NCBI RefSeq assembly: GCF_022865125.1 | Contig: NZ_CP094828.1 | Location: 3,217,219-3,281,218, forward strand | Reading direction: 5' to 3' | DNA length: 64,000 nucleotides | From: Acuticoccus sp. I52.16.1 | GTDB lineage: Bacteria; Pseudomonadota; Alphaproteobacteria; Rhizobiales; Amorphaceae | Shown here: positions 3,734 to 35,350 of the stretch, in pieces | Position numbering within the stretch: position 1 is the first letter of the stretch | Layout: the number at the start of each line of letters is the position of its first letter | Position numbers and translations under genes: made by a program | Notes under the pieces: generated by a model | Databases searched by the model: none | What the model saw: only the letters and a program-made list of their open reading frames with translations | What the model was told of the DNA's origin: nothing

Positions 3734-3740
3734 GCGGCCA

Positions 3741-19135: not shown

Positions 19136-19798
19136 ATGAAAACAGGAGAAAATACGTCGAAGAAGGGCCTGACGCAGGCGGCCTATGGGATCATTCGCGA
19201 AGCCATCATGAGTGGCGGCTTCGAGCCCGGACAAAAGCTGTCGACGCGCAAAATTGCTGTATCAATCGATATCGGCATCACGCCGGTGCGCGAGGCTCTG
19301 GTGCGCCTGGTGGCCGAGCGCGCGCTCGAGGCGAACCTCCAGCGCTCGCCGCGGATCCCACTCCTGACGCGTGCGCGGGCGCGCGAGCTGATCGAGCTGC
19401 GCTCGCTGCTGGAAGGGCGTGCGGCCGAATACGCCGCCGCCGAGGCGAGCGCGGAGGAAATCGCGGCGCTACAGCGGATCTCGCTGGAGATCATGGCGGC
19501 GCGCGAGCAGAACGACCGCGCGCGCGACATCCGCAAGATCTACGAGTTCCACTTCACGCTGTACCGCTGCGCGCGGCGGACGGAGCTGATCGGCCTGATC
19601 GAGACGCTGTGGCTGCGCACCGGCCCGTATCTCAACCTGCTCTTCCCCGACTATACGAGGACGCAGTTCGGCGAGGGTCGGGGCCGGATCATCGCGGCCC
19701 TGCGCGCGCGAGACGGCGCCTCCGCCCGCCGCGAGATCGAGGACGACATTTCCGGTGCGCTGACCTTCATCATCGATCATGTGCTGACCGAGGACTGA
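19136..19798 (+). CDS. GntR family transcriptional regulator, FadR/FCD subfamily
   Basis: A 220-residue regulator with an N-terminal winged helix-turn-helix (about 12-80; LTQAAYGIIREAIMSGGF, then ITPVREALVRLVAERAL) and an all-helical FCD ligand-binding domain (about 88-215; RARELIELRSLLEG, then IYEFHFTLYRCA). FCD regulators commonly respond to small carboxylic acids and repress nearby catabolic operons. It diverges from the large transporter/hydrolase operon and is the best candidate to control it. The ATG at 19136 keeps the full HTH. Confidence 0.85.
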   Translation: MKTGENTSKKGLTQAAYGIIREAIMSGGFEPGQKLSTRKIAVSIDIGITPVREALVRLVAERALEANLQRSPRIPLLTRARARELIELRSLLEGRAAEYAAAEASAEEIAALQRISLEIMAAREQNDRARDIRKIYEFHFTLYRCARRTELIGLIETLWLRTGPYLNLLFPDYTRTQFGEGRGRIIAALRARDGASARREIEDDISGALTFIIDHVLTED

Positions 19799-19827: not shown

Positions 19828-20559
19828 CTACAGCGTGCCCTTGAGCGGCTGGAAGTGGCCGGTGAACTGATAGCGGTCGCCGGGGTGGGTGATCTCGACG
19901 TAGGTGACCGTGCGCCCGCCTTGCCAGGTCTGGCGGGACAGGACCAGGCACGGCGCCCCCTTCGGCATGTCGAGTTCGCGGGCGATCGTGGCGTCGGCGG
20001 CGATCGCCCGGATGACATGGCGCGCCTCCGACCAGGGGACGTGCTCCAAGAGCCAGCTTCCGGGCGGCTTGGTCTCGAATGTCTCGAACCGGGCGCGGGG
20101 CACGGCGTCCAGCATGATGAGCCGGCTCTCCAGCGCGTGCGGGCGGCCGCCGACGATGTGCAGGCAGGTGAGGCGGACCACCTCCTGGCGCGCGGCGGTG
20201 TCGATCCGCTCCGCCTCGGCCGGGTCGAGGCGCTCCACCTTCATCGAGCGGATCTTGAAGGCATAGTCGTGGCCGGCCGCCTTGGCGGCGGTCCCGATGT
20301 CCTGGATCTCCATGACCGTGCGCTCGATCTGCGGTTGGGTCACGAACGATCCGGCGCGCCGCTTGCGGATGATCATGCCGCGGTCGGCGAGCTGGCCGAG
20401 CGCCTTGTTCACCGTCATGCGCGAGCAGCCGTACTCCGCTTCGAGCTCATACTCGAACGGGATGCGCTGGCCGGGCTGCCAGCGTCCGTCCATGATCTTC
20501 GCCTCGATATCCTCGCAGATCCGCTGATGGATCGATTTCTGCGGTGCGGGCGGCGTCAT
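19828..20559 (-). CDS. hutC: Histidine utilization repressor HutC (GntR family, UTRA domain)
   Basis: A 243-residue repressor. The N-terminal winged HTH spans about 8-75, with IHQRICEDIEAKIMDGRW, then CSRMTVNKALGQLADRG as recognition region. A UTRA ligand domain occupies about 95-235, with the HIVGGRPHALESRLIML and YVEITHPGDRYQFTGHF segments that mark the HutC branch. HutC binds operators in the absence of urocanate and releases them when urocanate accumulates. The identification is supported by hutU, hutH, hutI and hutF 9-15 kb to the right and by operator-like palindromes, one 67-80 bases upstream of its own ATG, which implies autoregulation. Confidence 0.9.
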   Translation of the reverse strand: MTPPAPQKSIHQRICEDIEAKIMDGRWQPGQRIPFEYELEAEYGCSRMTVNKALGQLADRGMIIRKRRAGSFVTQPQIERTVMEIQDIGTAAKAAGHDYAFKIRSMKVERLDPAEAERIDTAARQEVVRLTCLHIVGGRPHALESRLIMLDAVPRARFETFETKPPGSWLLEHVPWSEARHVIRAIAADATIARELDMPKGAPCLVLSRQTWQGGRTVTYVEITHPGDRYQFTGHFQPLKGTL

Positions 20560-20625
20560 GTCTCAGGCTCGCTTGGCGGCACCCTGTCTCCAATTCTCGG
20601 CCGTTCGGCCGGTATTTTCGCGACC

Positions 20626-20639
20626 ATATGTCTACACAT
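20626..20639. promoter_or_regulatory. HutC operator candidate A (upstream of hutC)
   Basis: ATATGTCTACACAT is an imperfect palindrome related to the ATGTATATACAT core seen at other sites in this locus. It is 67-80 bases upstream of hutC on the opposite side from the aminotransferase gene. It is the weakest match of the set. Confidence 0.45.
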
Positions 20640-20741
20640 CAACAGCGTTCGGGGGTGCGCGCAACGGCGATGGTGGGCGGCCGTACGAGCCATGCACGAG
20701 GTTCGGCAGGAAGGTCGTTGACGGGGCGATTTTTCGCGTAA

Positions 20742-20760
20742 TAAATATATACATATTGAG
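20742..20760. promoter_or_regulatory. HutC operator candidate B (upstream of HisC-like aminotransferase)
   Basis: TAAATATATACATATTGAG shares TATATACATATT with the strong site at 22928-22954 and ends with a GAG like that site's outer arm. It ends only 12 bases before the aminotransferase ATG, so binding there would block transcription or its start. Confidence 0.6.
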
Positions 20761-20772
20761 CCGGGAATCGCC

Positions 20773-21894
20773 ATGTCGTCGTCGCACGCTCGCCTGCGTT
20801 TCAACCCCCACTTCGCCTCCCTCCCACACTACAACGCCGGCATGTCGGACGCCGAGGCCGGCCGCGCAAGCGCGGGGCGGGGCCTCGTCCGCCTCGCGAG
20901 CAACGAGAACCCCTACGGCCCGTCGCCGGCGGCGATCGCCGAAGTGGCGGCGATGGCCGCGGCGGTGTGGCGCTATCCGGAGGGCAAGGCCGACGCCCTG
21001 CGCGCCGCCATCGCCGCGCACGCCGGCCTCGCCATCGACCGCGTCGTCGCCGGAAACGGATCGGAAGCGCTGATCGCGGCCCTCTCGCGCGCGTTCCTGG
21101 AGCCGGGCGCGGAGGTCGTGACGGTGGCGCCGAGCTTCGGCCTCCACGAGATCGAGCCGCTCGCCCAGGGGGCCCGCGTCGTAAAGGTGGCCATGACGCC
21201 GGCGTTGGAGTTCGACGTCGCCGCGCTCCGGGACGCGATCGCCGCCGGCCCGCGCCTGGTCTTCCTCAGCTCGCCCTCGAACCCGGTCGGCTCGACGCTG
21301 TCGCGAGAGGATCTGGCGCGGCTCCTGGCGGCCGTGCCGCGCGGCACCGTCTTCGTCCTGGACGAGGCCTATGCCGAATTCCGGCGCGACGCCGACGCAT
21401 TCGACCCGCTGGCGCTGGCGTTGGCGGCCGAGGTGGATTTCGTCACGCTGCGCACCTTTTCCAAGGCCTACGGGCTGGCCGGGCTGCGCATCGGCTACGC
21501 GCTCGCGTCGAGTGCGCAGGTCGCCGCGCTGATGCAGGCGGCGCTCACGCCGTTCAACGTCAACGCCGCGGCCCAGCGTGCCGCCGTCGCCGCCCTCGCC
21601 GACGAGCCCTTCATGCGCGCCACGGTGGCGACGATCGCCGCCGAGCGGGACCGCCTCGCCGCCGCGCTCGTGGCGCGGGGGTATGCGGTGGCGCGCTCGG
21701 AGGCGAACTTCCTGTTCTTCGACGCGCGTCGGGAGGCGGACGGCATCGCCGCGGCGCTCCTTCGCGAAGGGGTCATCGTCAAGCCGTGGACGGAGGCGGG
21801 CTACACTCGCTTCGTGCGCGTCACCGTCGGCCGGCCCGAACACAGCGAGGCCTTCCTCGCTGCGCTGGACCGGGTGGCGAGGCCGGCGGGCTGA
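20773..21894 (+). CDS. HisC-like aminotransferase in the HutC regulon
   Basis: A 373-residue fold-type I aminotransferase of the histidinol-phosphate aminotransferase family. Landmarks are LASNENPYGPSP at about 41-52, LSSPSNPVGS, the cofactor Asp in VLDEAYAEF, and the PLP lysine K231 in TFSKAYGLAGLRIGY. Biosynthetic HisC converts imidazole-acetol phosphate to histidinol phosphate; relatives act on histidine and aromatic amino acids. Here it has a HutC-type operator just before the start and divergent hutC as neighbour, so a catabolic role is more likely, for example histidine to imidazolepyruvate. That substrate is inference. A second biosynthetic copy elsewhere cannot be checked from this window. 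Confidence 0.82.
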   Translation: MSSSHARLRFNPHFASLPHYNAGMSDAEAGRASAGRGLVRLASNENPYGPSPAAIAEVAAMAAAVWRYPEGKADALRAAIAAHAGLAIDRVVAGNGSEALIAALSRAFLEPGAEVVTVAPSFGLHEIEPLAQGARVVKVAMTPALEFDVAALRDAIAAGPRLVFLSSPSNPVGSTLSREDLARLLAAVPRGTVFVLDEAYAEFRRDADAFDPLALALAAEVDFVTLRTFSKAYGLAGLRIGYALASSAQVAALMQAALTPFNVNAAAQRAAVAALADEPFMRATVATIAAERDRLAAALVARGYAVARSEANFLFFDARREADGIAAALLREGVIVKPWTEAGYTRFVRVTVGRPEHSEAFLAALDRVARPAG

Positions 21895-21911
21895 CCGCGC
21901 CGGCGGGGCGA

Positions 21912-22874
21912 TCACACCGGCGGATCCGTCGGTGCGAGCGTCGCGCGGCGGTGCCCGGCGCGGAAGACCTTGCCCGGCAGGGGGCGCCCGACGAGCCGCT
22001 GCGCCAGGTGCGCCGCGTCCGTCAGCCGGTCGAGGTCGAGCCCCGTTTCGATCCCCATCTCGGCACACACGAAGGCGAAGTCTTCCGTCGCGATGTTGCC
22101 GGCCGCGCCCGTCAGGCCGGCGAAGGGGCAGCCGCCCAGCCCGCCGATCGACCCGTCGAACCGGTCGACGCCGAGCGCCAGCCCGGCGAGCGCGTTGGCG
22201 ATGCCGCAGCCGCGCGTATCGTGCAGATGGAGCTTGACGGGAAGCTCCGGCCAGCGCTCGCGGATCGCGCCGACCACGCGGCTCACGAGCAGCGGATTGC
22301 CCCAGCCGGTGGTATCGGCGAGGTCCACCTCGTCGAGGCGAAAGCCATGGTCGCCGAGCAGATCCTCGACCCGCGCGATCATCGCCACGGTCCGCGCCTC
22401 CGGCACGTGCCCTTCGAACGTGCAGCCGAACGCCGTCATGACGCCGAGCGAGACGTCGCGCAGACCTTCCTCGGCGTAGATCTCGAGCCATTGCGGCATC
22501 GTCGCCAACGTCTCCTCGAACGAGCGGCCGACGTTGCGGCGGCCGAACGTCTCGCTGGTGGCGATGGAGAGCTTGGCGGTGAGGTCGGCGCCGGCGGTAC
22601 GGGCCCGTTCCAGGCCGCGGCGATTGAGCCAGAGCGCGCGATAGGCGACCCCCGGCCGTCGTGCCAGCGCGGCGAAGACGGCGTCCGTGTCGGCCATCTG
22701 CGGCACGCGGCCCGGATGGACGAACGAGCCGACCTCGATCTCGGCGAGACCGCTCTCGGCGAGGGCGTCGACGAGGGCGAGCTTCTCGCCGACGTCGAGC
22801 CGGCGCTCTTCCATCTGCAAGCCGTCACGCGGGCCGACCTCCATAATATGTATACGCTTGGGATGGTCGCTCAT
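21912..22874 (-). CDS. Hydroxymethylglutaryl-CoA lyase family protein
   Basis: A 320-residue TIM-barrel lyase of the HMG-CoA lyase family, which splits 3-hydroxy-3-methylglutaryl-CoA or related 3-hydroxyacyl-CoAs. The catalytic base region EVGPRDGLQ is at 12-20, the metal His pair lies in LHLHDTRG, and the catalytic Cys is in the GGLGGCPFA loop, all intact. The ATG at 22872-22874 gives a normal start; codons 6-11 contain an operator-like palindrome (candidate C). It diverges from the CoA-transferase gene across a 104-base region holding the best HutC operator. It is convergent with the aminotransferase gene, 17 bases away. The natural substrate in this locus is unknown. Confidence 0.85.
   Translation of the reverse strand: MSDHPKRIHIMEVGPRDGLQMEERRLDVGEKLALVDALAESGLAEIEVGSFVHPGRVPQMADTDAVFAALARRPGVAYRALWLNRRGLERARTAGADLTAKLSIATSETFGRRNVGRSFEETLATMPQWLEIYAEEGLRDVSLGVMTAFGCTFEGHVPEARTVAMIARVEDLLGDHGFRLDEVDLADTTGWGNPLLVSRVVGAIRERWPELPVKLHLHDTRGCGIANALAGLALGVDRFDGSIGGLGGCPFAGLTGAAGNIATEDFAFVCAEMGIETGLDLDRLTDAAHLAQRLVGRPLPGKVFRAGHRRATLAPTDPPV
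22844..22859. promoter_or_regulatory. HutC operator candidate C (inside the 5' end of the HMG-CoA-lyase-like gene)
   Basis: The top strand reads TAATATGTATACGCTT around a GTATAC core. It encodes residues of KRIHIM in the lyase but matches the operator motif in its AATATGTATAC half. A downstream operator inside the coding region could support looping with the site at 22928-22954, or it may be coincidence. Confidence 0.35.
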
Positions 22875-22927
22875 GGCATCGCTCCTGCATGGCGTACTGC
22901 AGTCTATTTTTTCCAATAGACACCAAA

Positions 22928-22954
22928 CTCGAATATTGTATATACATATTCGAG
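22928..22954. promoter_or_regulatory. HutC operator candidate D (strongest; lyase / CoA-transferase divergent promoter)
   Basis: Nine-base arms CTCGAATAT (22928-22936) and ATATTCGAG (22946-22954) are perfect inverted repeats flanking TGTATATAC, itself centred on the palindrome GTATATAC (22938-22945). The site is 25-51 bases upstream of the CoA-transferase ATG and 54-80 upstream of the divergent lyase ATG, so it can control both. Confidence 0.7.
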
Positions 22955-22978
22955 CCAGAAATCGAGTATCCCGCCGCT

Positions 22979-24232
22979 ATGTTCGCCTCCAAGTCCTTCA
23001 CCCCCGACGCGACCGGCCCGCTGCACGGCCTGAAGGTTCTGGACCTGTCCCGATTGGTCGCCGGCAACATGCTCAGCCTCCAGCTGGCCGACTTCGGCGC
23101 CGACGTCCTCAAGGTCGAGGGCGTCGCCAACGCCGACCCGCTGCGGGACTGGATGGTGGACGGACAGTCGCTGTTCTGGAAGGTCTACTGCCGCAACAAG
23201 CGCAGCCTCGCGGTGGACCTGCGGCAGGAGGCCGGAATGGCCGTCTTGACGCGCCTGATCGCCGAGGCCGACGTCCTGATCGAGAATTTCCGCCCCGGCA
23301 CGCTGGAGGCGATGGGCCTCGCGCCCGAGGTTCTGCTGTCCCTCAACCCGCGCCTCGTCGTCGTTCGGATCTCGGGCTATGGGCAGACCGGGCCCTACCG
23401 CGGCCGGCCGGGCTACGGCACGCTGGTCGAGGGGCTCTCCGGCCTAGCCACCCGCCTCGGCTTCGAGGATCGGCCGCCGATCCTTCCTCCGCTCGCCCTG
23501 TCGGACCTGGTGTGCGGCATCTACGGCGCCTACGCGACGATGGTCGCCGTCCAGGCCCGCTCGCCCGGCGGTGGCGGCCAGGTGATCGACCTCAGCCTCC
23601 TCGAGACCACGATGACCCTGCTCGGCCCGCAGGCGGAGACCTTCCGGCAGACCGGACGGCTGCCGCGCCGCGACGGCAGCCGCTCCGAAATCGCCTGCCC
23701 CCGGAACGTCTTCCGCACGCGGGACGGGCGCTGGGTGTCGCTGTCGGCGCCGATGCAGTCCATGGTCGAACGCCTGTTCCGGGCGATCGGCCGGGCCGAC
23801 ATGATCGACGACCCCCGCTTCGCCACCAATGCCGCGCGCCTCGACAATGCCGACGCCTGCGAGGGGCCGATCGCCGATTTCATCGCCGCGCGCGACCTCG
23901 ATGACGCCCTCGCCTTCTTCGACGCGGCGAGCGTCACCGTCGCGCCGGTCTACGATGTGGATCAGGTCGTCGCCGATCCGCACGTCCTGGAGCGCGAGGC
24001 GGTCGTCGACCTGCCGGATGCGGACTTGGGGCGGATCGCGATGCACAACATCGTCCCGCGCCTGTCGGATACGGCGGGCACCTTCCGCACGCCCGCGCCG
24101 GGCCATGGCGAGCACAGCCGCGAGGTGCTGACGGCGCTCGGCTTCGACGCCGGCGAGATCGATCGGATGGCGCGGGAGGGCGTCGTCCTCGCGCCGCTCG
24201 CTCCGGATCGCAGCGGGGTCGCGGCGCAATGA
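22979..24232 (+). CDS. Family III CoA-transferase (CaiB/BaiF)
   Basis: A 417-residue CoA-transferase. Family III signatures include HGLKVLDLSRLVAGNMLSL at the start, DVLKVEGVANADPLRDW, NKRSLAVDLRQEAG and VVRISGYGQTGPYRGRPGYG. Such enzymes activate a carboxylic acid by moving CoA from a donor thioester. The ATG at 22979 is preferred because the upstream in-frame ATG at 22889 would place the operator palindrome inside the coding region and adds non-conserved residues. The stop overlaps the start of the CitE-like lyase by four bases, so the two act in one pathway: an acid is activated, then its CoA ester is cleaved. Confidence 0.85.
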   Translation: MFASKSFTPDATGPLHGLKVLDLSRLVAGNMLSLQLADFGADVLKVEGVANADPLRDWMVDGQSLFWKVYCRNKRSLAVDLRQEAGMAVLTRLIAEADVLIENFRPGTLEAMGLAPEVLLSLNPRLVVVRISGYGQTGPYRGRPGYGTLVEGLSGLATRLGFEDRPPILPPLALSDLVCGIYGAYATMVAVQARSPGGGGQVIDLSLLETTMTLLGPQAETFRQTGRLPRRDGSRSEIACPRNVFRTRDGRWVSLSAPMQSMVERLFRAIGRADMIDDPRFATNAARLDNADACEGPIADFIAARDLDDALAFFDAASVTVAPVYDVDQVVADPHVLEREAVVDLPDADLGRIAMHNIVPRLSDTAGTFRTPAPGHGEHSREVLTALGFDAGEIDRMAREGVVLAPLAPDRSGVAAQ

Positions 24233-25128
24233 CCGCCGACGAGCCGCCGCTGTGGCGTTCGCTCCTCTACGTGCCGGTCACGTCGGAGCGCTTCGTCGCC
24301 GGCGCGGGCCGGCGGGGCGCGGACGCCGTCATCCTCGATCTGGAGGATTCCATCCCGCCCGACCGCAAGGCCGCGGCGCGGGCCGCGTTGCCCGGCGCCG
24401 TCGACGCGCTGGCGGGCTGCGGCAGCGACATCGTCGTGCGGGTGAACGCGGAGTTGCGGCACCTGGCGGCGGACATCGAGGCGGCCGTGCGTCCCGGTGT
24501 GGATGCCTTGTGTCTGCCCAAGGTCCGCTCGGCCGACCATGTGCGGCTGATCGCAGAACTGGTGGACGCGCTGGAGCGTGAACGAGAGCTGCCGGCCGGG
24601 CGCATCTCCTTCATCGTCCTGATCGAGACGCTGGACGCGCTGGGCGCGGCGGGCGCCATCGCCGCGGCGCACGCGCGCGTCGCGGCGCTGAGCCTGGGCG
24701 ACGAGGATTTCGCCACCGACGCCGGGATCGCGGCCTGTGAGGCGACGCTCGCCGGACCCAAGCAAGCGGTCGTCTTCGCCGCGCACCGGCACCGCCGGCT
24801 GGCGCTCGGCACGCTCGACACCATCGCCGACTTCGGCGACGTCGACGGGTACGCCGCGCTGGCCGCCCGCTCCCGGCGCTTCGGCTTCGACGGCGCGCCC
24901 TGCATCCACCCCACCCAGGTCGCTCCGCTCAACGCCGCCTTCACGCCGAGCGCGGACGAAGCCGCCGAGGCCGACGCCGTCCTCGCCGCGTTCGCCGCGG
25001 CGGCCCGCGAGGGACGCGGCGCCGTCGCCGCCGGCGGACGCATGATCGACGCGCCCGCGGTGGTCCGCGCCCGCGCCGTCCAGGATCGCCTGAGGCGTAT
25101 CGGCCGGAAGGCCGACGCCCCGCGATGA
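24229..25128 (+). CDS. CitE-like CoA-ester lyase (HpcH/HpaI aldolase/citrate lyase family)
   Basis: A 299-residue TIM-barrel lyase of the CitE/malyl-CoA lyase group. Visible are WRSLLYVPVTSERF, the metal-site strand AVILDLEDSIPPDRK, CLPKV, the catalytic Glu in FIVLIET, SLGDEDFATD and the substrate strand FDGAPCIHPTQV. Family members cleave malyl-CoA, citramalyl-CoA or related beta-hydroxy-acyl-CoAs to acetyl-CoA plus a keto acid. It is translationally coupled (ATGA) to the CoA-transferase. CoA-transferase plus citramalyl-CoA lyase is the arrangement of itaconate degradation, but the hydratase of that pathway is absent and the HutC-type operator points to a histidine-linked substrate. Confidence 0.82.
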   Translation: MTADEPPLWRSLLYVPVTSERFVAGAGRRGADAVILDLEDSIPPDRKAAARAALPGAVDALAGCGSDIVVRVNAELRHLAADIEAAVRPGVDALCLPKVRSADHVRLIAELVDALERERELPAGRISFIVLIETLDALGAAGAIAAAHARVAALSLGDEDFATDAGIAACEATLAGPKQAVVFAAHRHRRLALGTLDTIADFGDVDGYAALAARSRRFGFDGAPCIHPTQVAPLNAAFTPSADEAAEADAVLAAFAAAAREGRGAVAAGGRMIDAPAVVRARAVQDRLRRIGRKADAPR

Positions 25129-25165
25129 CACGCCACCATCGTCCACACCCGATCAGGAGATCACA

Positions 25166-25996
25166 TTGAGGATCGAGACGTTGATGCAGCTGCCGGCCGC
25201 GACGGCCCTAGCCCTGGGCCTGGCCTTCGCCGTGCCCGCCCACGCCGACACGCTTGCCGAGGTCCAGGAGGCCGGCAAGCTCGTGGTCGCCACCGAGATG
25301 CAATTCCCGCCGTTCGACTTCATGGTGAACGGTGAGTACACCGGCGTCGACAAGGATCTGCTCGACGAGGTCGGCAAGGAGCTGGGCGTCGAGATGGAGT
25401 ACGTCGACCTGCCGTGGACCAGCGTTCTGCCGGGTCTGGAAGCGGGCAAGTACGACTTCGTCGGCGCCCCGCTCAACGCCTCCCAGGCGCGCCTGGAGCG
25501 CTACGCCTTCTCGAGCCCGATCGCCTACTCGGGCAACGCCTTCGTGAAGCGCAAAGGCAACGACGAGATCACCGGTCCGGAGAGCCTCGCCGGCAAGACC
25601 GTCGGCGTCATCAAGGCCAGCTCCACGTTGAAGCAGGTCACCGCCTACTCCGAGACCCTCCCGGAGCCGATCGAGGTCCGCGAATATTCCGACATGCTGG
25701 GCGTCTACGCCGACGTCGCCAACGGCCGGATCGATGCCGGCGCCTCCTCGGTGCCCAACGTCTCCTACGCGTCGGTCCAGCGCCCCGACCAGCTGGAGGT
25801 CGTCCAGCCGCCGTTCGGCCAGCCGAACTATTATGGCTGGGTGACGCGCAAGGATCCGGCGGACGCCAGCCTCATCGAGGCGATCTCGGCCGCGCTCGAG
25901 ACCATGAAGGAAGACGGCCGCATGGCCGAGATCCAGATGAAGTGGTTCGGTCAGACCGAGGACCTGCCCGACACGATGCCGGATCCGGGGTTCTGA
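25166..25996 (+). CDS. Amino-acid ABC transporter substrate-binding protein (SBP family 3)
   Basis: A 276-residue periplasmic receptor of the GlnH/HisJ type. The signal peptide ends at about residue 27 (FAVPAHA before DTLAEV). The mature protein shows GKLVVATEMQFPPFDFMVNGEYTG, a family-3 ligand pocket opening, and IASSTLKQ-like hinge residues. The TTG at 25166 is the best start: AGGAGA lies six bases upstream, whereas the ATG at 25184 has only a weaker GAGG farther away. It follows the CitE-like gene by 37 bases and heads a four-gene importer; histidine, urocanate or an imidazole acid would fit the locus. Confidence 0.85.
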   Translation: MRIETLMQLPAATALALGLAFAVPAHADTLAEVQEAGKLVVATEMQFPPFDFMVNGEYTGVDKDLLDEVGKELGVEMEYVDLPWTSVLPGLEAGKYDFVGAPLNASQARLERYAFSSPIAYSGNAFVKRKGNDEITGPESLAGKTVGVIKASSTLKQVTAYSETLPEPIEVREYSDMLGVYADVANGRIDAGASSVPNVSYASVQRPDQLEVVQPPFGQPNYYGWVTRKDPADASLIEAISAALETMKEDGRMAEIQMKWFGQTEDLPDTMPDPGF

Positions 25997-26038
25997 TCCC
26001 CGCGATCCCGTCCTGACCGACCGACAGGTGCCGCGCCG

Positions 26039-26692
26039 ATGAACACACAAGACTGGCAGACCGCGATCCCGTTCCTTCTGGAGGGTCTCGGCGTCACGCT
26101 CTACGTGTCGTTGGCGGGCACGGCGCTCGGCTGCGTCATCGGCCTGGCGGTCGCTGCTATGCGGGGCGGCCCGGTGCTGCCCCTGTCGCTGCTGGCGCGG
26201 GTCTATGTGAGTTTCTTCCGCGGCGTGCCGCTGCTGGTGCAGATGCTCCTGTTCTACAATTTCCTGCCCTTCGTCGGCATCGACCTGTCGGCCCCGGCCT
26301 CGGCCATCGGCGCGCTGGGGCTCGTCGGCGGTGCCTATATCGCCGAGATCCTGCGCGGCGCGCGGGCGGCGATCCCCGGCGGGCAGGTCGAGGCGGCGCG
26401 GGCCTTCGGCTATGCGCCGGTCACGATCTGGCGAACGATCCTGCTGCCGCAGATGGTGCGCATCGCGATGCCGGCCATCACCAGCGAGTTCATCCTGCTG
26501 GTGAAGGCGTCCTCGCTGATCTCCGTGGTGGGGCTGGCGGAGCTGACGCGCGTGGCCCAGGGGTTCGCGGCGTCGACCTTCCGGCCGATGGAGTTCTACC
26601 TCGCCGCCGCGGCGCTCTACCTCGTCACCAATCTCCTCGTCGCCGCCGGTGGGCGCGCGATCGAGCGCAAATTCTCCCGCGGGGCCGCCTGA
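26039..26692 (+). CDS. Amino-acid ABC transporter permease (HisM/GlnP type) 1
   Basis: A 217-residue permease with about five membrane segments. The polar-amino-acid family loop reads AYIAEILRGARAAIPGGQVEAARAFG, followed by TSEFILLVKASSLISVVG. It forms the membrane channel with the next gene, whose ATG begins two bases after this stop. The spacing implies one transcript with the binding protein. Confidence 0.88.
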   Translation: MNTQDWQTAIPFLLEGLGVTLYVSLAGTALGCVIGLAVAAMRGGPVLPLSLLARVYVSFFRGVPLLVQMLLFYNFLPFVGIDLSAPASAIGALGLVGGAYIAEILRGARAAIPGGQVEAARAFGYAPVTIWRTILLPQMVRIAMPAITSEFILLVKASSLISVVGLAELTRVAQGFAASTFRPMEFYLAAAALYLVTNLLVAAGGRAIERKFSRGAA

Positions 26693-26693
26693 G

Positions 26694-27365
26694 ATGAACC
26701 TCGACCCCGGCGTCGTCGTCGCCTACCTGCCGGCAATCGGCCACGGGCTGCTGCTGACCCTCTTCGCGTGGATCGTCTCCTCGGTCCTGGGGATCGCCCT
26801 GGGGTTGGGGCTGGCGCTGGCGGGCGGCTCACGCCTCGCGCCGCTGCGCTGGACCGTCCGCGGCTATATCGAACTCATGCGCTGCACGCCGATCCTGGTG
26901 CAGCTCCTCCTCGTCTACGGCGGCGGCCCGTCCATCGGGCTGTTCCTGGAGCCGATGGAGGCCGGGATCCTGGTGCTCACCGCCCACGGCGCGGCCTACT
27001 TCGCGGAGATCTTCCGTGGCGGCTTCGCGGCCGTGCCGGCGGGGCAGGTCGAGGCGGCGCACAGCCTGGGCATGCATCCGCTGGCGATCCTGCGGCGGGT
27101 GACGCTGCCGATCGCCCTCACGGCGGCCCTGCCGGGGATGATCAACATGATCATCAACGTGTGCAAGGAGACGGCGGTCCTGTCGATCATCACCGTCCCG
27201 GAGCTGACCTTCGAGGTTCAGAAGATGTCGATCGAGACGTTCGCGGCATTCGAGGCCATCTTCATGCTCGCGGTCGGCTACTGGGTGCTGGTCGAGCTGT
27301 TCTCGGTCGTCGGCCGCGCCGTCGAGGTCCGCATCAACCGACACTTGACCCTGAAGGAAGCGTGA
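26694..27365 (+). CDS. Amino-acid ABC transporter permease (HisQ/GlnP type) 2
   Basis: A 223-residue second permease with the same family loop ([26 protein letters not shown]) and [19 protein letters not shown] near the end. The ATG at 26694 follows the previous stop almost immediately; an upstream in-frame start at 26649 would overlap the other permease and is not needed. Its TGA overlaps the ATG of the ATPase gene by one base. Confidence 0.88.
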
Positions 27366-28144
27366 TGAGCGCCTGCGTCGTCGAAATCTCCGGCCTGGCC
27401 AAGAGCTTCGGGCAGACCGAGGTTCTGCGGGACATCGATCTCACGGTGAACCGTTCGGAGGTGGTGTGCCTGATCGGCCCGAGCGGCTCGGGCAAGAGCA
27501 CGCTGCTGCGCTGCATCAACTTCCTCGAGCCGTACAATCGCGGCACGGTGAAGATCAACGGCCGGACCATCGGCTATGTCGACCGCGGCGGGCGGCGCAA
27601 GCCGATGTCCGCGCGCCAGCTGCGGGGCGAGCGGCGCAACATCGGAATGGTGTTCCAGCAGTTCAACCTGTGGCCGCACATGACCGCGACCGAGAACGTC
27701 GCCGAGCCGCTCATCCGCGTCAAAGGCGTGGCGAAGGCGGCGGCGATGGAGAAGGCGGGGGCGCTGCTCGCCCGCGTCGGCCTCGCCGAGCGGGCCGCCG
27801 CCTTTCCGAGCAACCTGTCCGGCGGCCAGCAGCAGCGCGTGGCGATCGCTCGCGCGCTGTCGATGGATCCCGAGCTGATGCTGTTCGACGAGCCGACCTC
27901 CGCGCTCGACCCCGAGCTGGTCGGCGAGGTGCTCGAAGTCATGCGCGACCTGGCGCGCGAGGGCATGACGATGGTGGTCGTCACCCACGAGATGGGCTTC
28001 GCCGCCAACGCGGCCGACCGGGTGGCCTTCCTCGACGGGGGGCGCATCGTCCAGTGCGGCACCCCGCAGGCGGTGTTGAAGGACAGCACGGAGCCGCGGG
28101 TGCGGCAGTTCCTGAAGACCTACCATGCCCGCAACGACTTCTAG
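27365..28144 (+). CDS. Amino-acid ABC transporter ATP-binding protein (HisP/GlnQ type)
   Basis: A 259-residue ATPase. Walker [11 protein letters not shown]-loop [10 protein letters not shown], signature [15 protein letters not shown], Walker [15 protein letters not shown] and switch His in VVTHEMG are all intact. The sequence between Walker A and the Q-loop has the insertion typical of polar amino-acid importers. It completes the importer SBP-permease-permease-ATPase and is followed after 12 bases by the dehydrogenase-like gene. Confidence 0.9.
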
Positions 28145-28156
28145 GACGCCCGCGCC

Positions 28157-29179
28157 GTGACCCCGATCGTCCTGGCGCCGGACGCCACGCCCGCCGACCT
28201 CGACCTGGAGCGTGCGGCCGCCGCCGGTGCGCTCGCTTTCCGCCACTTCAACGAGACCGACCCGGCCGGCATCCCGGACGAGGCGTGGCGCGGCTGCGAC
28301 GCCGTCCTCAAGTGGAAGTCGATGCAGCTGACGGCGGAGGTGATCGCCAAGCTGGAGCGGTGCCGCTTCATCGTGCGCGTCGGCGTCGGGACCGACAATA
28401 TCGATATCGACGCGGCCCGCGCGTGCGGCATCCCGGTGGCCAACGTGCCCAACTACGGCACAACCGAGGTGGCGGACCACGGCATGGCGCTGCTCCTGTC
28501 GCTGGCGCGCGGCATCGAGCCGTATCAGACGCGATTGCGGGCCGACCTGGTGAACGGGTCCGTCTCCACCGGGGTGCCGACGGTGCGGCGCTTGCGGGGG
28601 GCGGTTTTCGGTTGCGTCGGGCTGGGGCGTATCGGCAGTGCCATGGCGCGCCGGGCCCGCGGGTTCGACATGGACGTCGTCTACTTCGATCCGGCGCTGC
28701 CGTCCGGGCACGAGCTGGGCGCCGGCCTCCGGCGTGCACGAGACCTCGACTCGCTGCTGGCGGAGGCGGACGTGGTCAGCCTGCATGCGCCGCTGACCGA
28801 GGCGACGCGCGGGCTCATGAACGCCGCCCGCTTCGCGGCGATGAAGCCGGGGGCGACCCTCGTCAACATCGCCCGCGGCCCGCTCGTCGACCTCGATGCG
28901 CTGGAGGGGGCGCTGCGGTCCGGCCACCTCGCGGCGGCGGGGCTCGACGTGCTTCCGGAGGAGCCGCCCACCGGCGGCCACCCGCTGCTGACGGCGTGGC
29001 AGAACCGCGAGCCGTGGCTCGACGGCCGCCTCGCCGTGACGCCGGATGCGGCCTACTTCTCCGCCGCCAGCTACCGGGACATGCGCACCTTCTCGGTCGA
29101 GACGCTGCGCGCCGGCCTGCTGCACGGCGAGTTCCGCGACGTGGTGAACCCCGGCTGGGAGGCGTACCGCAGGGCCTGA
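28157..29179 (+). CDS. D-2-hydroxyacid dehydrogenase / C-terminal-binding-protein-like protein with altered catalytic His
   Basis: A 340-residue member of the D-isomer-specific 2-hydroxyacid dehydrogenase family, closest in feel to the CtBP-like branch. The NAD motif GLGRIG is at 155-160, the substrate-binding Arg is R240 (NIARGPLVD) and the paired Glu is E269 (VLPEEP). At the position of the catalytic His (usual TPH-A-x-YS) the sequence reads VTPDAAYFS, so Asp297 replaces it. GTG at 28157 is the start. The last gene of the rightward transporter unit, it would fit reduction of imidazolepyruvate to imidazolelactate, but with the His missing the activity is doubtful. Confidence 0.75.
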   Translation: MTPIVLAPDATPADLDLERAAAAGALAFRHFNETDPAGIPDEAWRGCDAVLKWKSMQLTAEVIAKLERCRFIVRVGVGTDNIDIDAARACGIPVANVPNYGTTEVADHGMALLLSLARGIEPYQTRLRADLVNGSVSTGVPTVRRLRGAVFGCVGLGRIGSAMARRARGFDMDVVYFDPALPSGHELGAGLRRARDLDSLLAEADVVSLHAPLTEATRGLMNAARFAAMKPGATLVNIARGPLVDLDALEGALRSGHLAAAGLDVLPEEPPTGGHPLLTAWQNREPWLDGRLAVTPDAAYFSAASYRDMRTFSVETLRAGLLHGEFRDVVNPGWEAYRRA

Positions 29180-29285
29180 CCGAGCACCGGCCGCGCTCGC
29201 CCCGCGGCGACCGGCGGCCCCACTCCGGGGCGGCCGGGTCGCGCACAGCTCACGTCAGGCAGGGGTCACGCCCGCACACGCCGCC

Positions 29286-30959
<1,674 letters not shown>

Positions 30960-31124
30960 CGGCCCTGTCTCTCGCTGTCATGGTGTCTGTCGCCGTCGTC
31001 GTGGTGGGAGCGAGCAGCGCCGGCCGCTCCGGGATGAATGTCACAGGGGCGCGTCGTCGCCCGGCCCCGGCCGGCGCGCCGCCGCATCCGGAGCGGGGCG
31101 GCGCCACGCGGCTCGCGGCCGTGG

Positions 31125-32663
31125 TCACGCGCCGTCCAGCGTGACACGGCACTCGGCGCCGACGCTAGCCACGAGGCGCCCGTCGGCGACGAGCGCGCCG
31201 GCGGCCTCGAGGTCCGGGGCCAGGTAGCGGTCGACGTCGAGCGTGGGAACGCTGGCGCGCAGCACTGCGATCGCCTTGGTCAGCTCCGGGCTGGTGGCGA
31301 GCGGGGCGCGGAACTCGACCCCCTGCGCCGCGGTGACGGCCTCGATCCCGATGATGGCGAAGAGGTTCGCCGTCATCGCCAACAACCGCCGCGCGCCGTG
31401 GCAGGCCATGGATACGTGGTCCTCCTGGTTGGCCGACGTCGGCGTGGAATCCACCGAGGCCGGGTGCGCCATCTGCTTGTTCTCGCTCATCAGCGCCGCC
31501 GACGTGACCTCGGCGATCATCAGGCCGGAGTTCAGCCCCGGCGCCTTGGCCAGGAAGGCCGGCAGCCCGTAGGAGAGGGCCGGGTCGACCAGCAGCGCGA
31601 TGCGCCGCTGCGCGATGGCGCCGATCTCGCAGACCGCCAGGGCGATCTGGTCGGCCGCGAAGGCGACCGGCTCGGCGTGGAAGTTGCCGCCCGAGACGAC
31701 GCTGTCGTCGGACAGGACGAGCGGGTTGTCGGTCACGGCATTCGCCTCGACGACGAGGGTGCGCGCCGCGTTGCGCAGGAGGTCGAGGCAGGCTCCGTCC
31801 ACCTGGGGCTGGCAGCGGATGCAGTAGGGATCCTGCACGCGCTCGTCTCCCTCGATGTGGCTTTCGCGGATGGCGGAGCCGGCGAGCAGGGCCCGCAACG
31901 CGGCGGCGGTGTCGATCTGCCCCTGATGGCCGCGCAGGGTGTGGATCTCGGCGACGAAGGGGGCGGAGGAGCCCATCGCCGCATCGGTCGACATCGCGCC
32001 GGTGACGAGGGCGGCCTGTGCCGCGCGGTGGGCGCGCAACAGCCCTGCCAGCGCCAGCGCGGTGGAGACCTGCGTGCCGTTGATCAGGGCGAGGCCCTCC
32101 TTGGCGGCGAGGACCACCGGTTCGAGGCCGGCGCGCTCCAGCGCCACGCGGCCGGGGAGGCGCTCGGCGTTCACCACCGCCTCGCCCTCGCCCATCATCA
32201 CGGCCGCGAGGTGGGCGAGAGGTGCCAGATCGCCCGACGCGCCGACCGAGCCCTTCTCCGGGATGACGGGGATCACGCCGCGCGCCAGCATGGCCTCGAC
32301 GAGGCGGACGAGTTCCAGCCGCACGCCCGACGCGCCACGGCCGAGCGAGATGAGCTTCAGCGCCATGACGAGCCGCACGACGTCCTCGCCCAGCGGCGCG
32401 CCGACGCCGCAGCAGTGGGAGAGAATGAGATTGCGCTGCAGCGTGGCGGTGTCCGCGGCGTCGATGGTGATGGAGGCGAGCTTGCCGAACCCGGTGTTCA
32501 CCCCGTAGACGGGCGCGTTTCCGGCGGCGATCGCGGCGATCCGCGCGGCGGCCCGCTCGATGCCGGCGTCGAAGGCCGGGTCCAGGCGGGCGGGCACGCC
32601 GTCCCAGTACAGGGTGGCGAGGTCGCGGAGGGTGACGTCGCCGGGGCGCAGGACGAGACTCAT
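31125..32663 (-). CDS. hutH: Histidine ammonia-lyase HutH
   Basis: A 512-residue enzyme that deaminates histidine to urocanate, the inducer of HutC. The MIO prosthetic group forms from A142-S143-G144 in [15 protein letters not shown], and the active-site Tyr is in [12 protein letters not shown] (Y53). The ATG at 32661-32663 overlaps the hutI stop by four bases (ATGA). The in-frame extension upstream overlaps hutI and is rejected. Confidence 0.97.
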
Positions 32664-33898
32664 GGGCGCGGCTCCAGGGTGTTGTCCGCGACGCCACGCA
32701 CGACGCGGGCCGCGAGCGGGTTGTATCCGATGCGGTAGACCAGCTCGGCGGGCTCGGTCACGTCCCAGAGGCAGAAGTCGGCCGCCTTTCCGGCCGTCAG
32801 CGTGCCGACGCTGTCTTGGAGGCCGAGCGCACGGGCCGCCTCGCGGGTGAGGCCGGCGATGCACTCGTCCACTGTCAGGCCGAAGAAGGTCGCCGCCATG
32901 TTCATGGTGAGCAGCGGGGAGGTCAGCGGCGAGGAGCCGGGGTTGTTGTCGGTGGCGATGGCGATGGCTGTGCCGGCCTCGCGCAGGGTCGCGACCGGAG
33001 GCTTGCGCGTCTCGCGCAGGACGTAGAAGGCGCCCGGCAGCAGGACGGCGACGGTGCCGGCCTGCGCCATCGCGGCGGCGCCCGCGGCGTTCAGATATTC
33101 GAGGTGATCCGCCGACAGGGCACCGTAGCGGGCCGCCAGCGCACCGCCCTCCAGGTCGGAGAGCTGGTCGGCGTGCAGTTTGACGGGGAGGCCCAGGCGC
33201 GCCGCGGCGTCGAACACGCGGGCGATCTCGCCCGGCGAAAAGGCGATCCCCTCGCAGAACCCGTCGACGGCGTCGGCGAGCCCCTCGGCGTGGGCGGCCT
33301 CGAGGCCCGGGATCACCACATCGTCGACGAAGGCGCCGGCGCGGCCGCGATAGTCCGCCGGCACCGCGTGGGCGCCGAGGTAGGATGTGACGACGGTGAC
33401 GCCTTCGTCGCCGAGCCGCCGCGCCGCACGCAGCATCTTCAGCTCGTCCGCCACAGTGAGGCCATAGCCCGACTTCACCTCCACGGTGGTCACGCCCTCG
33501 GCCTTCAGCGCCGCGAGGCGGGGGAGGCTCTCGGCGACGAGCTGGTCCTCGCCGGCGGCCCGCACGTCGGTGACGGTGGAGACGATGCCGCCGCCCGCCC
33601 GCGCGATCTCCTCGTAGGAGGCGCCCGCCAGACGCATCTGGAACTCGCGCGCACGGTGGCCGGCGTGGACCAGATGGGTGTGGCAGTCGATGAAGCCGGG
33701 CGTCGCCAGGCGGCCGGCGCAGTCCACCTCCCGCGCATCGGCCGCGAGATCCGGCGGCAGGTCCGCCGCGGCGCCGGCATAGCGGATCCTGCCGCCCCGC
33801 ACCGCGATCGCCCCGTCCGCGACCTCGCCGAGGCCGTCACGGTCCGGGTCGAGAGTGGCGAGGCGCGCGTTGCGCCAGATCCGATCGCCTTGTGCCAT
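32660..33898 (-). CDS. hutI: Imidazolonepropionase HutI
   Basis: A 412-residue amidohydrolase-fold enzyme that opens imidazolonepropionate to N-formimidoyl-glutamate, the third step. Metal ligands H73 and H75 are in [12 protein letters not shown], with HADQLSD and [10 protein letters not shown] later. It is the first gene of the leftward hut unit. Its ATG at 33896-33898 lies 24 bases from an operator-like palindrome shared with divergent hutF. An upstream ATG (33952) would run through that operator and is rejected. Confidence 0.96.
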
Positions 33899-33921
33899 GC
33901 AGGTTGCCTCGCGTTTTGAGG

Positions 33922-33938
33922 TTATGTATATACTTATT
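33922..33938. promoter_or_regulatory. HutC operator candidate E (hutI / hutF divergent promoter)
   Basis: TTATGTATATACTTATT contains the same GTATATAC palindrome (33926-33933) as the site at 22928-22954, with A/T-rich flanks. Only 99 bases separate the divergent ATGs of hutI and hutF, so one bound repressor can control both transcripts. Confidence 0.68.
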
Positions 33939-33997
33939 GGCAGATCGAGCAAGCGTCATGCTGCCCGTTTCGTCCCGTTTCGCGAAGGGGAGACCAA

Positions 33998-35350
33998 ATG
34001 GCCGTCATCCACGCCCGGCACGCGCTTCTGCCGTCCGGACTGGCCTGCAATGTGCGGCTGACGCTGTCCGCGGGCACGATCGCGACGGTCGAAACCGGGG
34101 CGGCGCCGCTCCCCGGCGACGAGCGCCACGAGATGGTGCTCCCGGCGGTCGGCAACGTTCACAGCCACGCCTTTCAGCGGGCCATGGCCGGCCTGACCGA
34201 GCTACGCGGCCCCAGTGCCGACAACTTCTGGAGCTGGCGGCGCGAGATGTACCGCATCGGTCTCAACATGAGCCCCGAGCACGTCGAGGCCGTGGCCGCG
34301 CAGCTCTACATGGAGATGCTGGAGGCCGGGTTCGGCCGCGTCGGCGAGTTCCACTACCTCCACCACGACCCGAGCGGCGTCCCTTACGCCGATCCGGCCG
34401 AAATGGCGCTGCGGATCGCCGAAGCCAGCCGGACGGTCGGGATCGGCCTGACGCTGCTGCCGGTATTCTACGCCCATGCCGACTTCGGCGGCGCGCCGCC
34501 CCTCGCCGGCCAGCGCCGCTACATCCACGACGTCGACGGGTTCGCGTCGCTGGTCGCGCGGTGCGAGGCGATCGTGGCGGAGTTGCCGGGGGGCGTCTGC
34601 GGCGTCGCCCCGCACAGCCTGCGCGCGGTGACGGCGGACGAGCTGGCGGCGGTGGTCGCGCTCAGTGCCGGCCCGGTCCATATCCATGCCGCCGAGCAGG
34701 TGGCGGAGGTCGAGAGGTGCCTGGCGCAGACGGGGGCGCCACCGGTCCAATGGCTGCTCGACAATACCCCCGCGGACGGGCGCTGGTGCTTCATCCACGC
34801 CACGCACATCGACGCGGACGAGGTGCGTGGAATCGCGGCGCGCGGGGTCGTCGCCGGTCTGTGCCCGATCACCGAGTCCAACCTCGGTGACGGCATTTTC
34901 CCCGCCGGCGCCTTCCTCGAGGCCGGCGGCCGTATCGCGATCGGCTCCGACTCCAACGTCGACATCTCGTTGCGGCGCGAGCTTCGGACGCTCGAATATT
35001 CGCAGCGCCTGTCGCAGCGCGCGCGCAACGTGATCGCCCACCCCGGCGGATCGACCGGGCAGCGCCTGTTGCACGAAGCGTCGTGCGGCGGCGCCGCGGC
35101 CATCGGCGGCATGGCCGGCATCGCCCCCGGCGCGCCGGCAGACCTCGCCGCGCTGGACATGGCGTCCGTGCCCTGGTTGCCGGCGGACAAGGCGCTGGAC
35201 CACTTCGTCTTCGCCGGCGGCATCGGCGTCGACACCGTCTGGTGCGGCGGCGTCCGGCGGGTCGAGGGCGGGCGGCACGTCCAGCGCGACGCGATCGAAG
35301 CCCGGTTCGCGGCGGCCAGGCACGACCTGATGCGCCACGACCCGCTCTGA
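33998..35350 (+). CDS. hutF: Formimidoylglutamate deiminase HutF
   Basis: A 450-residue amidohydrolase-superfamily enzyme that removes ammonia from N-formimidoyl-glutamate to give N-formyl-glutamate. Metal ligands H55 and H57 lie in GNVHSHAFQRAMAG; later segments are HIHAAEQ, FIHATHID and the metal Asp in IGSDSNVDIS. AGGGGAGACCAA just before the ATG is a good ribosome site. The HutF route requires HutG (N-formylglutamate deformylase) next, and no such gene is in the window. It diverges from hutI across operator E. Confidence 0.95.
   Translation: MAVIHARHALLPSGLACNVRLTLSAGTIATVETGAAPLPGDERHEMVLPAVGNVHSHAFQRAMAGLTELRGPSADNFWSWRREMYRIGLNMSPEHVEAVAAQLYMEMLEAGFGRVGEFHYLHHDPSGVPYADPAEMALRIAEASRTVGIGLTLLPVFYAHADFGGAPPLAGQRRYIHDVDGFASLVARCEAIVAELPGGVCGVAPHSLRAVTADELAAVVALSAGPVHIHAAEQVAEVERCLAQTGAPPVQWLLDNTPADGRWCFIHATHIDADEVRGIAARGVVAGLCPITESNLGDGIFPAGAFLEAGGRIAIGSDSNVDISLRRELRTLEYSQRLSQRARNVIAHPGGSTGQRLLHEASCGGAAAIGGMAGIAPGAPADLAALDMASVPWLPADKALDHFVFAGGIGVDTVWCGGVRRVEGGRHVQRDAIEARFAAARHDLMRHDPL

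What the first reader, a model, noticed from the sequence alone, without database searches (positions are those of the whole stretch)
19828..35350. Extended HutC regulon: CoA-transferase/lyase module embedded between hutC and hutIHUF
Seen: palindromic sites built on GTATATAC or close variants occur at 20626, 20742, 22844, 22928 and 33922. All five lie in promoter regions or the extreme 5' end of genes of this locus, and I noticed no other such site in the window. Known: HutC is the GntR/UTRA repressor of histidine genes released by urocanate. Inferred: the HisC-like aminotransferase, HMG-CoA-lyase-like protein, family III CoA-transferase, CitE-like lyase and amino-acid ABC transporter are co-regulated with histidine breakdown, although none belongs to the classical hut pathway.
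Basis: partly seen in the sequence, partly recalled or inferred. Interest (0 to 1): 0.82.

Follow-up and report, generated by a model that had tools for sequence, protein, structure and literature searches.

The report
Histidine repressor controlling extra catabolic genes
A bacterial repressor of histidine breakdown very probably also controls a neighbouring set of uptake and breakdown genes, and its closest relatives elsewhere sit beside such transporters without histidine genes nearby, which hints at an unrecognised route for compounds related to histidine.

Summary
The observation largely holds. A matrix trained on HutC operators of other genera ranks four of the five claimed sites first to fourth in the window: 22932, 33920 and 20739 strongly, 20624 moderately. 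The fifth (22844) scores near chance, though it holds the only ATA among 209 isoleucine codons of the locus, conserved in a sister genome. Genome-wide, the tight operator patterns cluster at this locus. Sister genome G200 has the same 14 genes in the same order (plus hutG), with the three strong operators 80-90% identical against 52-58% for surrounding intergenic DNA. Co-regulation by the adjacent HutC-type repressor is well supported, by sequence only.

The interpretation needs correcting. The repressor is not the usual hut-locus HutC: it groups (100/100) with repressors standing beside this kind of ABC transporter on rhizobial replicons, with no hut genes in the regions fetched. Embedded genes recur elsewhere in part: with HutC-type operators in Mesorhizobium, without one in Agrobacterium vitis. 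The binding protein lacks the aspartate that normally holds an alpha-amino group, so it probably imports a carboxylic acid. I propose an imidazolyl hydroxy-acid or urocanate-like substrate feeding histidine breakdown. The role of the CoA-transferase and lyase genes stays unknown.

The parts
19828..20559 (-). HutC-type repressor (GntR/UTRA), transporter-associated lineage
   Evidence: TIGR02018 277.7 bits, cut-off 220; Pfam GntR and UTRA; tree
20624..20643 (.). moderate HutC operator, 64 bp before hutC
   Evidence: 15.7 bits; exact WTGTNTANACAW; G200 has a 12.4-bit site at the matching place
20739..20758 (.). HutC operator, 14 bp before the HisC-like gene
   Evidence: 28.1 bits; G200 21.7 bits; 16/20 identical
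20773..21894 (+). HisC-like aminotransferase (PRK05166 type), second copy in the genome
   Evidence: TIGR01141 294.5 bits; PRK05166 424.9 bits, under its cut-off 540; other hisC elsewhere
21912..22874 (-). HMG-CoA-lyase-like protein
   Evidence: PRK05692 277.6 bits, cut-off 246
22844..22863 (.). possible half-operator inside codons 4-11 of the HMG-CoA-lyase-like gene
   Evidence: 6.9 bits only; rare ATA codon shared with G200
22932..22951 (.). HutC operator between HMGL-like and CaiB genes
   Evidence: 34.7 bits, best in the window; G200 34.5 bits; 17/20 identical
22979..24232 (+). family III (CaiB-type) CoA-transferase
   Evidence: Pfam CoA_transf_3 367.6 bits; no NCBIfam cut-off met
24229..25128 (+). 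CitE-like CoA-ester lyase
   Evidence: Pfam HpcH_HpaI; citE model 145.1 bits, under its cut-off
25166..25996 (+). ABC transporter binding protein without the amino-acid Asp
   Evidence: SBP_bac_3; alignments
26039..26692 (+). ABC permease 1
26694..27365 (+). ABC permease 2
27365..28144 (+). ABC ATPase
28157..29179 (+). D-2-hydroxyacid dehydrogenase with Asp at the catalytic His position
   Evidence: Pfam; alignment
29286..30959 (-). hutU, urocanate hydratase
   Evidence: TIGR01228 966.7 bits
31125..32663 (-). hutH, histidine ammonia-lyase
   Evidence: TIGR01225 704.3 bits
32660..33898 (-). hutI, imidazolonepropionase
   Evidence: TIGR01224 423.3 bits
33920..33939 (.). HutC operator between hutI and hutF
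   Evidence: 29.2 bits; G200 31.2, G199 32.7 bits; 18/20 identical to G200
33998..35350 (+). hutF, formimidoylglutamate deiminase
   Evidence: TIGR02022 576.1 bits

Best explanation
One HutC-type repressor controls the whole 15.5 kb locus. It binds palindromes of the TGTA-N2-TACA type at its own promoter, before the HisC-like gene, between the HMG-CoA-lyase-like gene and the CaiB-CitE-ABC-dehydrogenase operon, and between hutI-H-U and hutF. Urocanate, or a related imidazolyl acid, releases it (published for other HutCs, not shown here). The repressor belongs to a lineage found beside this type of ABC transporter, so the locus is best read as a transport-and-catabolism module and a hut operon under one repressor. 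Inferred function: the transporter brings in a carboxylate without a free alpha-amino group, such as imidazolyl-lactate or urocanate; a 2-hydroxyacid dehydrogenase and the HisC-like aminotransferase turn the hydroxy acid through the oxo acid into histidine, which the Hut enzymes degrade. The CoA-transferase and the two lyases are a side branch whose substrate I cannot name. Shown by sequence: operators, their conservation, gene order, lineage, residue changes. Not shown: binding, inducer, substrate, enzyme activities. My odds: co-regulation 0.85; regulator derived from the module rather than from hut 0.5 (I first set 0.6 and lowered it on recheck, because the next branch outside the clade includes a hut-locus HutC, L085); imidazolyl hydroxy-acid or urocanate-like substrate 0.35.
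For: HutC model met, 277.7 against 220; one such gene in the genome at E<=1e-40. Sites rank 1-4 in the window; tight patterns concentrate here genome-wide. G200 keeps gene order and operators at 16-18 of 20 positions, other intergenic positions 52-58%. Tree: 9-row clade, 100/100, of the genus trio plus six transporter-adjacent repressors. In 10 of 13 related transporter loci outside the genus a site of 18.4-28.3 bits lies in the region before the binding-protein gene (L083, L089, L092, L123, L124, L176, L180, L181, L183, L185). Aminotransferase and HutC-type control linked elsewhere: R. gallicum has repressor, transporter, HisC-like and GlcD-like genes within about 10 kb; G099 has a 32.4-bit site before a PRK05166-type gene (cut by the end of the fetched region) about 9 kb from hutC, with hisD and LldD-like genes; Mesorhizobium AR02 has sites of 28.3 and 24.0 bits between binding protein and a CaiB-like gene, HisC-like further on; Gemmobacter has a 23.0-bit site before a CaiB-like gene, with a HisC-like gene upstream. 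Binding protein: Arg kept and no Asp in 14 of 14 aligned. Published operator TGTA-N2-TACA (PMC12977541, passages) and urocanate as effector (PMC4349456, passages).
Against: No binding or expression data. The full module is seen in 2 of the 10 family genomes searched with the repressor, so operator conservation rests on one comparison; at hutC/HisC 34 of 194 twenty-column windows are as conserved as the operator (these counts include overlapping windows). G199 has hut and HMGL without HisC, CaiB, CitE, transporter or dehydrogenase, so hut does not need the module. In 3 of 13 transporter loci (L179 A. vitis, L182, L184) no operator was found, best 9.2, 8.1 and 9.6 bits; L184 holds only 142 bp before the gene. 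Three of the nine transporter-adjacent repressors (L089, L092, L183) fall outside the clade, and the next branch out holds a hut-locus HutC, L085. CaiB-CitE pairs occur without hut in 16 of 16 regions checked, two named ones (L125, L126) have no operator above 9.0 bits, and HisC-like genes in L160-L162 and Shinella L177 have none above 10.1. The window's dehydrogenase has lost its catalytic His, which weakens the hydroxy-acid route in this strain. A 21.2-bit site at C1:3068688 lies before another GntR/UTRA gene, so operator likeness alone does not name the regulator.
Confidence: 0.6

Rival explanations
1. Co-regulation is real, but the embedded genes serve an unrelated pathway, such as activation and cleavage of a branched or hydroxylated dicarboxylic acid (CaiB plus CitE plus HMGL), and simply landed under HutC control because they are useful in the same habitat.
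For: CaiB-CitE pairs recur without hut: CitE adjacent in 12 of 16 regions, hut in 0 of 16; also L125, L126. The best NCBIfam hit of CaiB is succinate-glutarate CoA-transferase (234.8 bits, far under its cut-off 750). HMGL has the HMG-CoA-lyase subfamily cut-off met.
Against: The transporter, aminotransferase and repressor lineage recur together without CaiB-CitE (L180); HMGL stands between hutU and hutC in G199 without CaiB.
Confidence: 0.25
2. The sites before HisC and CaiB are operators of another GntR/UTRA or FCD regulator, not of the adjacent HutC.
For: Another GntR/UTRA gene in the genome has a similar palindrome (21.2 bits); an FCD-type GntR gene lies next door at 19136-19798.
Against: The same sequence type stands at hutI/hutF here and before hut genes in 34 of 40 regions. 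The FCD gene has no relative in the 45 kb around the G200 locus (L050-L052).
Confidence: 0.1
3. The sites outside the hutI/hutF promoter are relics of recent ancestry or chance AT-rich stretches without function.
For: Only one comparison genome has the same module; two of five sites are weak.
Against: 34.7 and 28.1 bits against simulated maxima up to 6.1; 17/20 and 16/20 identity in intergenic regions otherwise 52-58% identical.
Confidence: 0.05

Closest known systems
HutC-controlled hut operons of Pseudomonas and of this order
   Same: Repressor family; operator TGTA-N2-TACA at hut promoters (PMC12977541, passages); operator between hutI and hutF
   Different: Here operators also stand before the HisC-like gene and the CaiB-CitE-ABC-dehydrogenase operon, and the repressor belongs to another group
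HutC-type repressor plus ABC transporter loci on rhizobial plasmids (R. johnstonii pRL10 RL_RS29190-RL_RS29210; R. gallicum pRGM101b; R. etli pRetNXC12e)
   Same: Repressor 60-64% identical, transporter subunits 40-59% identical, aminotransferase nearby
   Different: No hut enzymes in the 20-25 kb fetched; FMN monooxygenase and flavin reductase instead of CoA genes. I saw no described function (searches; listings)
Ergothioneine (thiourocanate) degradation genes of Neorhizobium sp. NCHU2750
   Same: A HutC-type gene and the same transporter type beside thiourocanate hydratase and thiohydantoin desulfurase
   Different: Its repressor lies outside the window's clade; the window's hutU is an ordinary urocanate hydratase (966.7 bits for hutU; 678.3 for thiourocanate hydratase, cut-off 930)
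Agrobacterium vitis T60/94 plasmid run ABC-HMGL-CaiB-HisC
   Same: The same four kinds of genes in one run; transporter 50-65% identical
   Different: HMGL and CaiB distant (35%, 31%), no hutC in the 20.7 kb fetched, no clear operator

Membership tests
HutC (TIGR02018) | Score above the curated cut-off, with GntR and UTRA domains | tested here: met
   277.7 bits against 220; Pfam
HutC (TIGR02018) | Operator of the published type TGTA-N2-TACA at its promoters | tested here: met
   Exact at 22937-22946 by reading the sequence; one mismatch at the hutI/hutF site; matrix; published form
HutC (TIGR02018) | Grouping with hut-locus HutCs of the order (not part of the model's definition) | tested here: not met
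   Groups with six transporter-adjacent repressors, 100/100; next branch out includes hut-locus L085
HutC (TIGR02018) | Release from DNA by urocanate | not testable with these tools
   Needs a binding assay
Histidine utilisation (hut) operon | hutH, hutU, hutI, hutF present | tested here: met
   All above NCBIfam cut-offs
Histidine utilisation (hut) operon | hutG (N-formylglutamate deformylase) in the locus | tested here: not met
   165 bp between hutU and hutH; three FGase-family genes elsewhere; G200 has hutG there (370.1 bits)
HisC, histidinol-phosphate aminotransferase | TIGR01141 cut-off | tested here: met
   294.5 against 276.55; but the genome has another hisC (297 bits), so a biosynthetic role is doubtful (inference)
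HMG-CoA lyase (PRK05692) | Subfamily cut-off | tested here: met
   277.6 against 246; substrate not testable here
Amino-acid-binding protein (SBP family 3) | Arg for the carboxylate and Asp for the alpha-ammonium (roles recalled) | tested here: not met
   Arg kept in 14 of 14; Asp falls on the first or second Ser of the SS pair depending on the PDB chain aligned; in 14 of 14 relatives these two letters are SS, NS or GS, never Asp
D-2-hydroxyacid dehydrogenase | Catalytic Arg, Glu and His (recalled) | tested here: not met
   Arg and Glu present, His is Asp; His in 17 of 17 relatives aligned, of 19 found
Thiourocanate hydratase (NF058530) | Cut-off 930 bits | tested here: not met
   Window hutU 678.3 bits

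The most novel reading that the evidence does not exclude
A separate lineage of HutC-type repressors ('HutC2', my label) governs an undescribed uptake and degradation route for imidazolyl carboxylic acids other than histidine (for example imidazolyl-lactate or an N-methylated relative) in this order. Its kernel would be a binding protein without the amino-acid Asp, a PRK05166-type aminotransferase and a 2-hydroxyacid dehydrogenase, with exchangeable oxygenase or CoA branches. In this genus the route has been fused with hut under one repressor, which reveals its link to histidine.
Probability: 0.35. Interest if true: 0.68.

Novelty: new variant of a known kind. Interest (0 to 1): 0.5.

Why it matters
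It turns a curiosity of gene order into testable predictions. Rhizobial plasmids carry a HutC-like repressor beside a transporter with no substrate that I could find described; here the same group sits inside hut, which points to an imidazolyl acid. Operators, binding protein and aminotransferase can each be tested with purified proteins. It also warns that 'hutC' annotations in this order mix lineages with different gene partners.

Tried and rejected
CaiB in genome contigs: only two weak relatives, 48% and 34%, no use. CaiB neighbourhoods in the order: 16 of the 18 matches outside the own genome were fetched; no hut genes in any. HMGL on plasmids: 6 records; the one opened (L178) has no hut or hutC, the other five were not opened. 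HisC-like genes of another genus (g62; L160-L162): beside genes that look by eye like a Rieske oxygenase, a reductase and a GlcD-like oxidase, no hut, no operator above 10.1 bits. Class-level search with the repressor (385 genomes, E<=1e-75): only the own genome; the draw evidently did not hold G200, G199 or G187, so it says little. Sigma-70 scan of 20500-23050: none. FCD regulator as controller: rejected, no relative around the G200 locus. Ergothioneine degradation by the window itself: rejected by the hutU scores. Structure prediction was not used, because it would not settle the substrate. A whole-genome matrix scan was not possible; patterns were used, and 5 of the 20 places came without a locus and were not scored. 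The motif column is void (the letter N was taken literally) and was repeated correctly. The label 'none' for G200 is an artefact of a 9 kb distance limit. A family scan of L202 found nothing at E<=1e-40; the frame I gave may be wrong. Literature: searches gave nothing usable.
Full report
What is there. Between 19828 and 35350 lie, in order: a HutC-type repressor gene (-), a HisC-like aminotransferase (+), an HMG-CoA-lyase-like gene (-), then on the + strand a tightly packed run of CaiB-type CoA-transferase, CitE-like lyase, binding protein, two permeases, ATPase and D-2-hydroxyacid dehydrogenase, then hutU, hutH, hutI (-) and hutF (+). Gaps inside the run from CaiB to the dehydrogenase are at most 42 bp, or overlaps, so it is probably one operon (inference).

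Sites. The five sites were tested with a matrix built from 39 sites in 34 of 40 hutC regions fetched outside the genus. I chose those sites by their GTNTANAC core near hut gene starts, so the core is built in. Four of the five claimed sites are the four best of the 64 kb window (34.7, 29.2, 28.1, 15.7 bits). The fifth (22844) scores 6.9, rank 7; the best scores of ten simulated windows reached 6.1. It lies in codons 4-11 of the HMG-CoA-lyase-like gene. Of 209 Ile codons in the 14 genes, 205 are ATC, 3 ATT and 1 ATA; the single ATA is in this element and is also ATA in sister genome G200, but GTT in G199, where the gene follows hutU. This suggests selection on the DNA, not a full operator.

Genome-wide. 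GTATATAC occurs four times in 5.53 Mb, twice here (reversed control three); the 3 kb around the other two hold nothing scoring above -2.6 bits. The 16-base pattern is found five times, three here, control zero. Exact WTGTNTANACAW is found twice, both here; with one mismatch it is no commoner than its control, 20 against 26. Of the 15 places that came as loci, the best outside this locus score 21.2 bits at C1:3068688, before another GntR/UTRA gene beside a TRAP-type binding protein (kinds judged by eye), and 16.1 bits at C1:2538613, inside a probable coding sequence. So the 15.7 bits of 20624 are not unique by score.

Conservation. In the family, 3 of 10 genomes have this repressor at E<=1e-40. 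G200 (86% identical) has the same 14 genes in the same order, plus hutG between hutH and hutU, with sites at 3735 (31.2 bits), 15273 (34.5) and 17506 (21.7), a weaker one before hutC (12.4) and one of 11.6 in the HMGL start. The strong operators are 17/20, 16/20 and 18/20 identical, against 44/84 (52%), 112/193 (58%) and 44/79 (56%) for the rest of each intergenic region. Counting all overlapping 20-column windows, 8 of 85, 34 of 194 and 5 of 80 are as conserved, so the contrast is weak at hutC/HisC. G199 (74%) has hutF, operator, hutI, hutH, hutU, HMGL, hutC and none of HisC, CaiB, CitE, transporter or dehydrogenase.

The regulator's lineage. In a tree of 50 HutC-type proteins, the window, G200 and G199 form a clade (100/100) with six repressors that stand beside a related ABC transporter: five on plasmids (two of them near-copies) and one in G187. 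No hut enzyme was found in the 19-25 kb fetched around those six. G187 also has a hut-locus HutC, 44% against 58% for the other. Against a clean story: three more transporter-adjacent repressors (L089, L092, L183) lie outside the clade, and the next branch out holds L085, a hut-locus HutC, and L096_8341. The root is arbitrary. So the grouping is firm, the direction is open: a module regulator that took over hut, or a hut regulator that gained the transporter.

The module elsewhere. R. johnstonii pRL10 has repressor, transporter, LysR, FMN monooxygenase, flavin reductase, an aminotransferase of type PRK07550 and an agmatinase-like gene. R. gallicum has repressor, transporter, NtaA/DmoA-type monooxygenase, HisC-like aminotransferase and a GlcD-like oxidase. 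A. vitis has transporter, HMGL, CaiB and hisC in one run, without hutC in 20.7 kb or clear operator. Mesorhizobium AR02 has the transporter diverging from a CaiB-like gene, sites of 28.3 and 24.0 bits between them and a HisC-like gene further on, without hutC in the 19 kb seen. Gemmobacter has a 23.0-bit site before a CaiB-like gene in a HisC-like cluster. G099 has a 32.4-bit site before a PRK05166-type aminotransferase (cut by the region's end) about 9 kb from hutC, with hisD and LldD-like genes. In Neorhizobium NCHU2750 a HutC-type gene and this transporter type stand beside thiourocanate hydratase and thiohydantoin desulfurase, enzymes of ergothioneine breakdown (pathway recalled). In 10 of 13 related transporter loci outside the genus a site of 18.4-28.3 bits lies before the binding-protein gene; L179, L182 and L184 have none. 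Also against: HisC-like genes in L160-L162 and Shinella L177 lack a site, and CaiB-CitE pairs occur without hut: CitE adjacent in 12 of 16 regions, hut in 0 of 16.

The transporter's ligand. Family 3 binding proteins hold the alpha-carboxylate with an Arg and the alpha-ammonium with an Asp (recalled). The Arg is kept. The Asp of the PDB chains falls on the first or second Ser of the window's SS pair, depending on the chain. In the window and 13 relatives these two letters are SS, NS or GS, never Asp. A ligand without a free alpha-amino group follows as inference.

How it most likely works. Without inducer, HutC blocks its own gene, the HisC-like gene, the HMGL/CaiB promoters and hut. Urocanate made from histidine, or a related acid, releases it. 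Transporter, dehydrogenase and aminotransferase then feed a related acid into histidine, and Hut degrades it to formylglutamate; deformylation would come from one of three FGase-family genes elsewhere, since hutG is missing here. The role of CaiB, CitE and HMGL is unexplained. The window's dehydrogenase has Asp where 17 of 17 aligned relatives (of 19 found), G200 included, have the catalytic His, so that step may be impaired in this strain.

Known background. HutC of Pseudomonas binds TGTA-N2-TACA and acts more widely in P. aeruginosa (PMC12977541, passages); urocanate is listed as HutC effector (PMC4349456, passages); HutC sites in P. aeruginosa can depart from the consensus (PMC12772324, passages). 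Searches for this gene combination listed no paper on it (listings only).

Verdict. A variant of a known kind, of moderate interest, with a sharper open question attached.

Noticed in passing
window 28157-29179 (codon 297): The D-2-hydroxyacid dehydrogenase has TPDAAYFS where 17 of 17 aligned relatives, G200 included, have a His; possibly an altered or inactive enzyme, or a sequence error.
   Followed up: partly
window 30960-31124: hutG is absent between hutU and hutH although G200 has it there (TIGR02017, 370.1 bits); three FGase-family genes lie elsewhere in the genome.
   Followed up: yes
L183 3037-5797 and 9941-13703: Neorhizobium sp. NCHU2750 plasmid: thiourocanate hydratase and thiohydantoin desulfurase near an ABC transporter and a HutC-type repressor, candidate importer and regulator for ergothioneine breakdown.
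   Followed up: partly
L098 13393-19901: G099: HutC operator (32.4 bits) before a PRK05166-type aminotransferase, with hisD and LldD-like genes next to hut; looks like use of histidinol or a related compound under HutC.
   Followed up: partly
L196 593-2797 (G000:C1:3068688): Another GntR/UTRA regulator with its own palindrome TTATTTGTATGAACAAATTT beside a TRAP-type binding protein, judged by eye.
   Followed up: no
L106 769-880 and L122 1799-1886: HutC-type sites (30.6 and 29.9 bits) upstream of ABC ATPase genes about 8-9 kb from hutC, probably further transporters under HutC.
   Followed up: no
L050 15302: G200 has a second operator-like element TGTCTATACA between HMGL and CaiB; the window has only AATAGACACC at the matching place.
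   Followed up: partly
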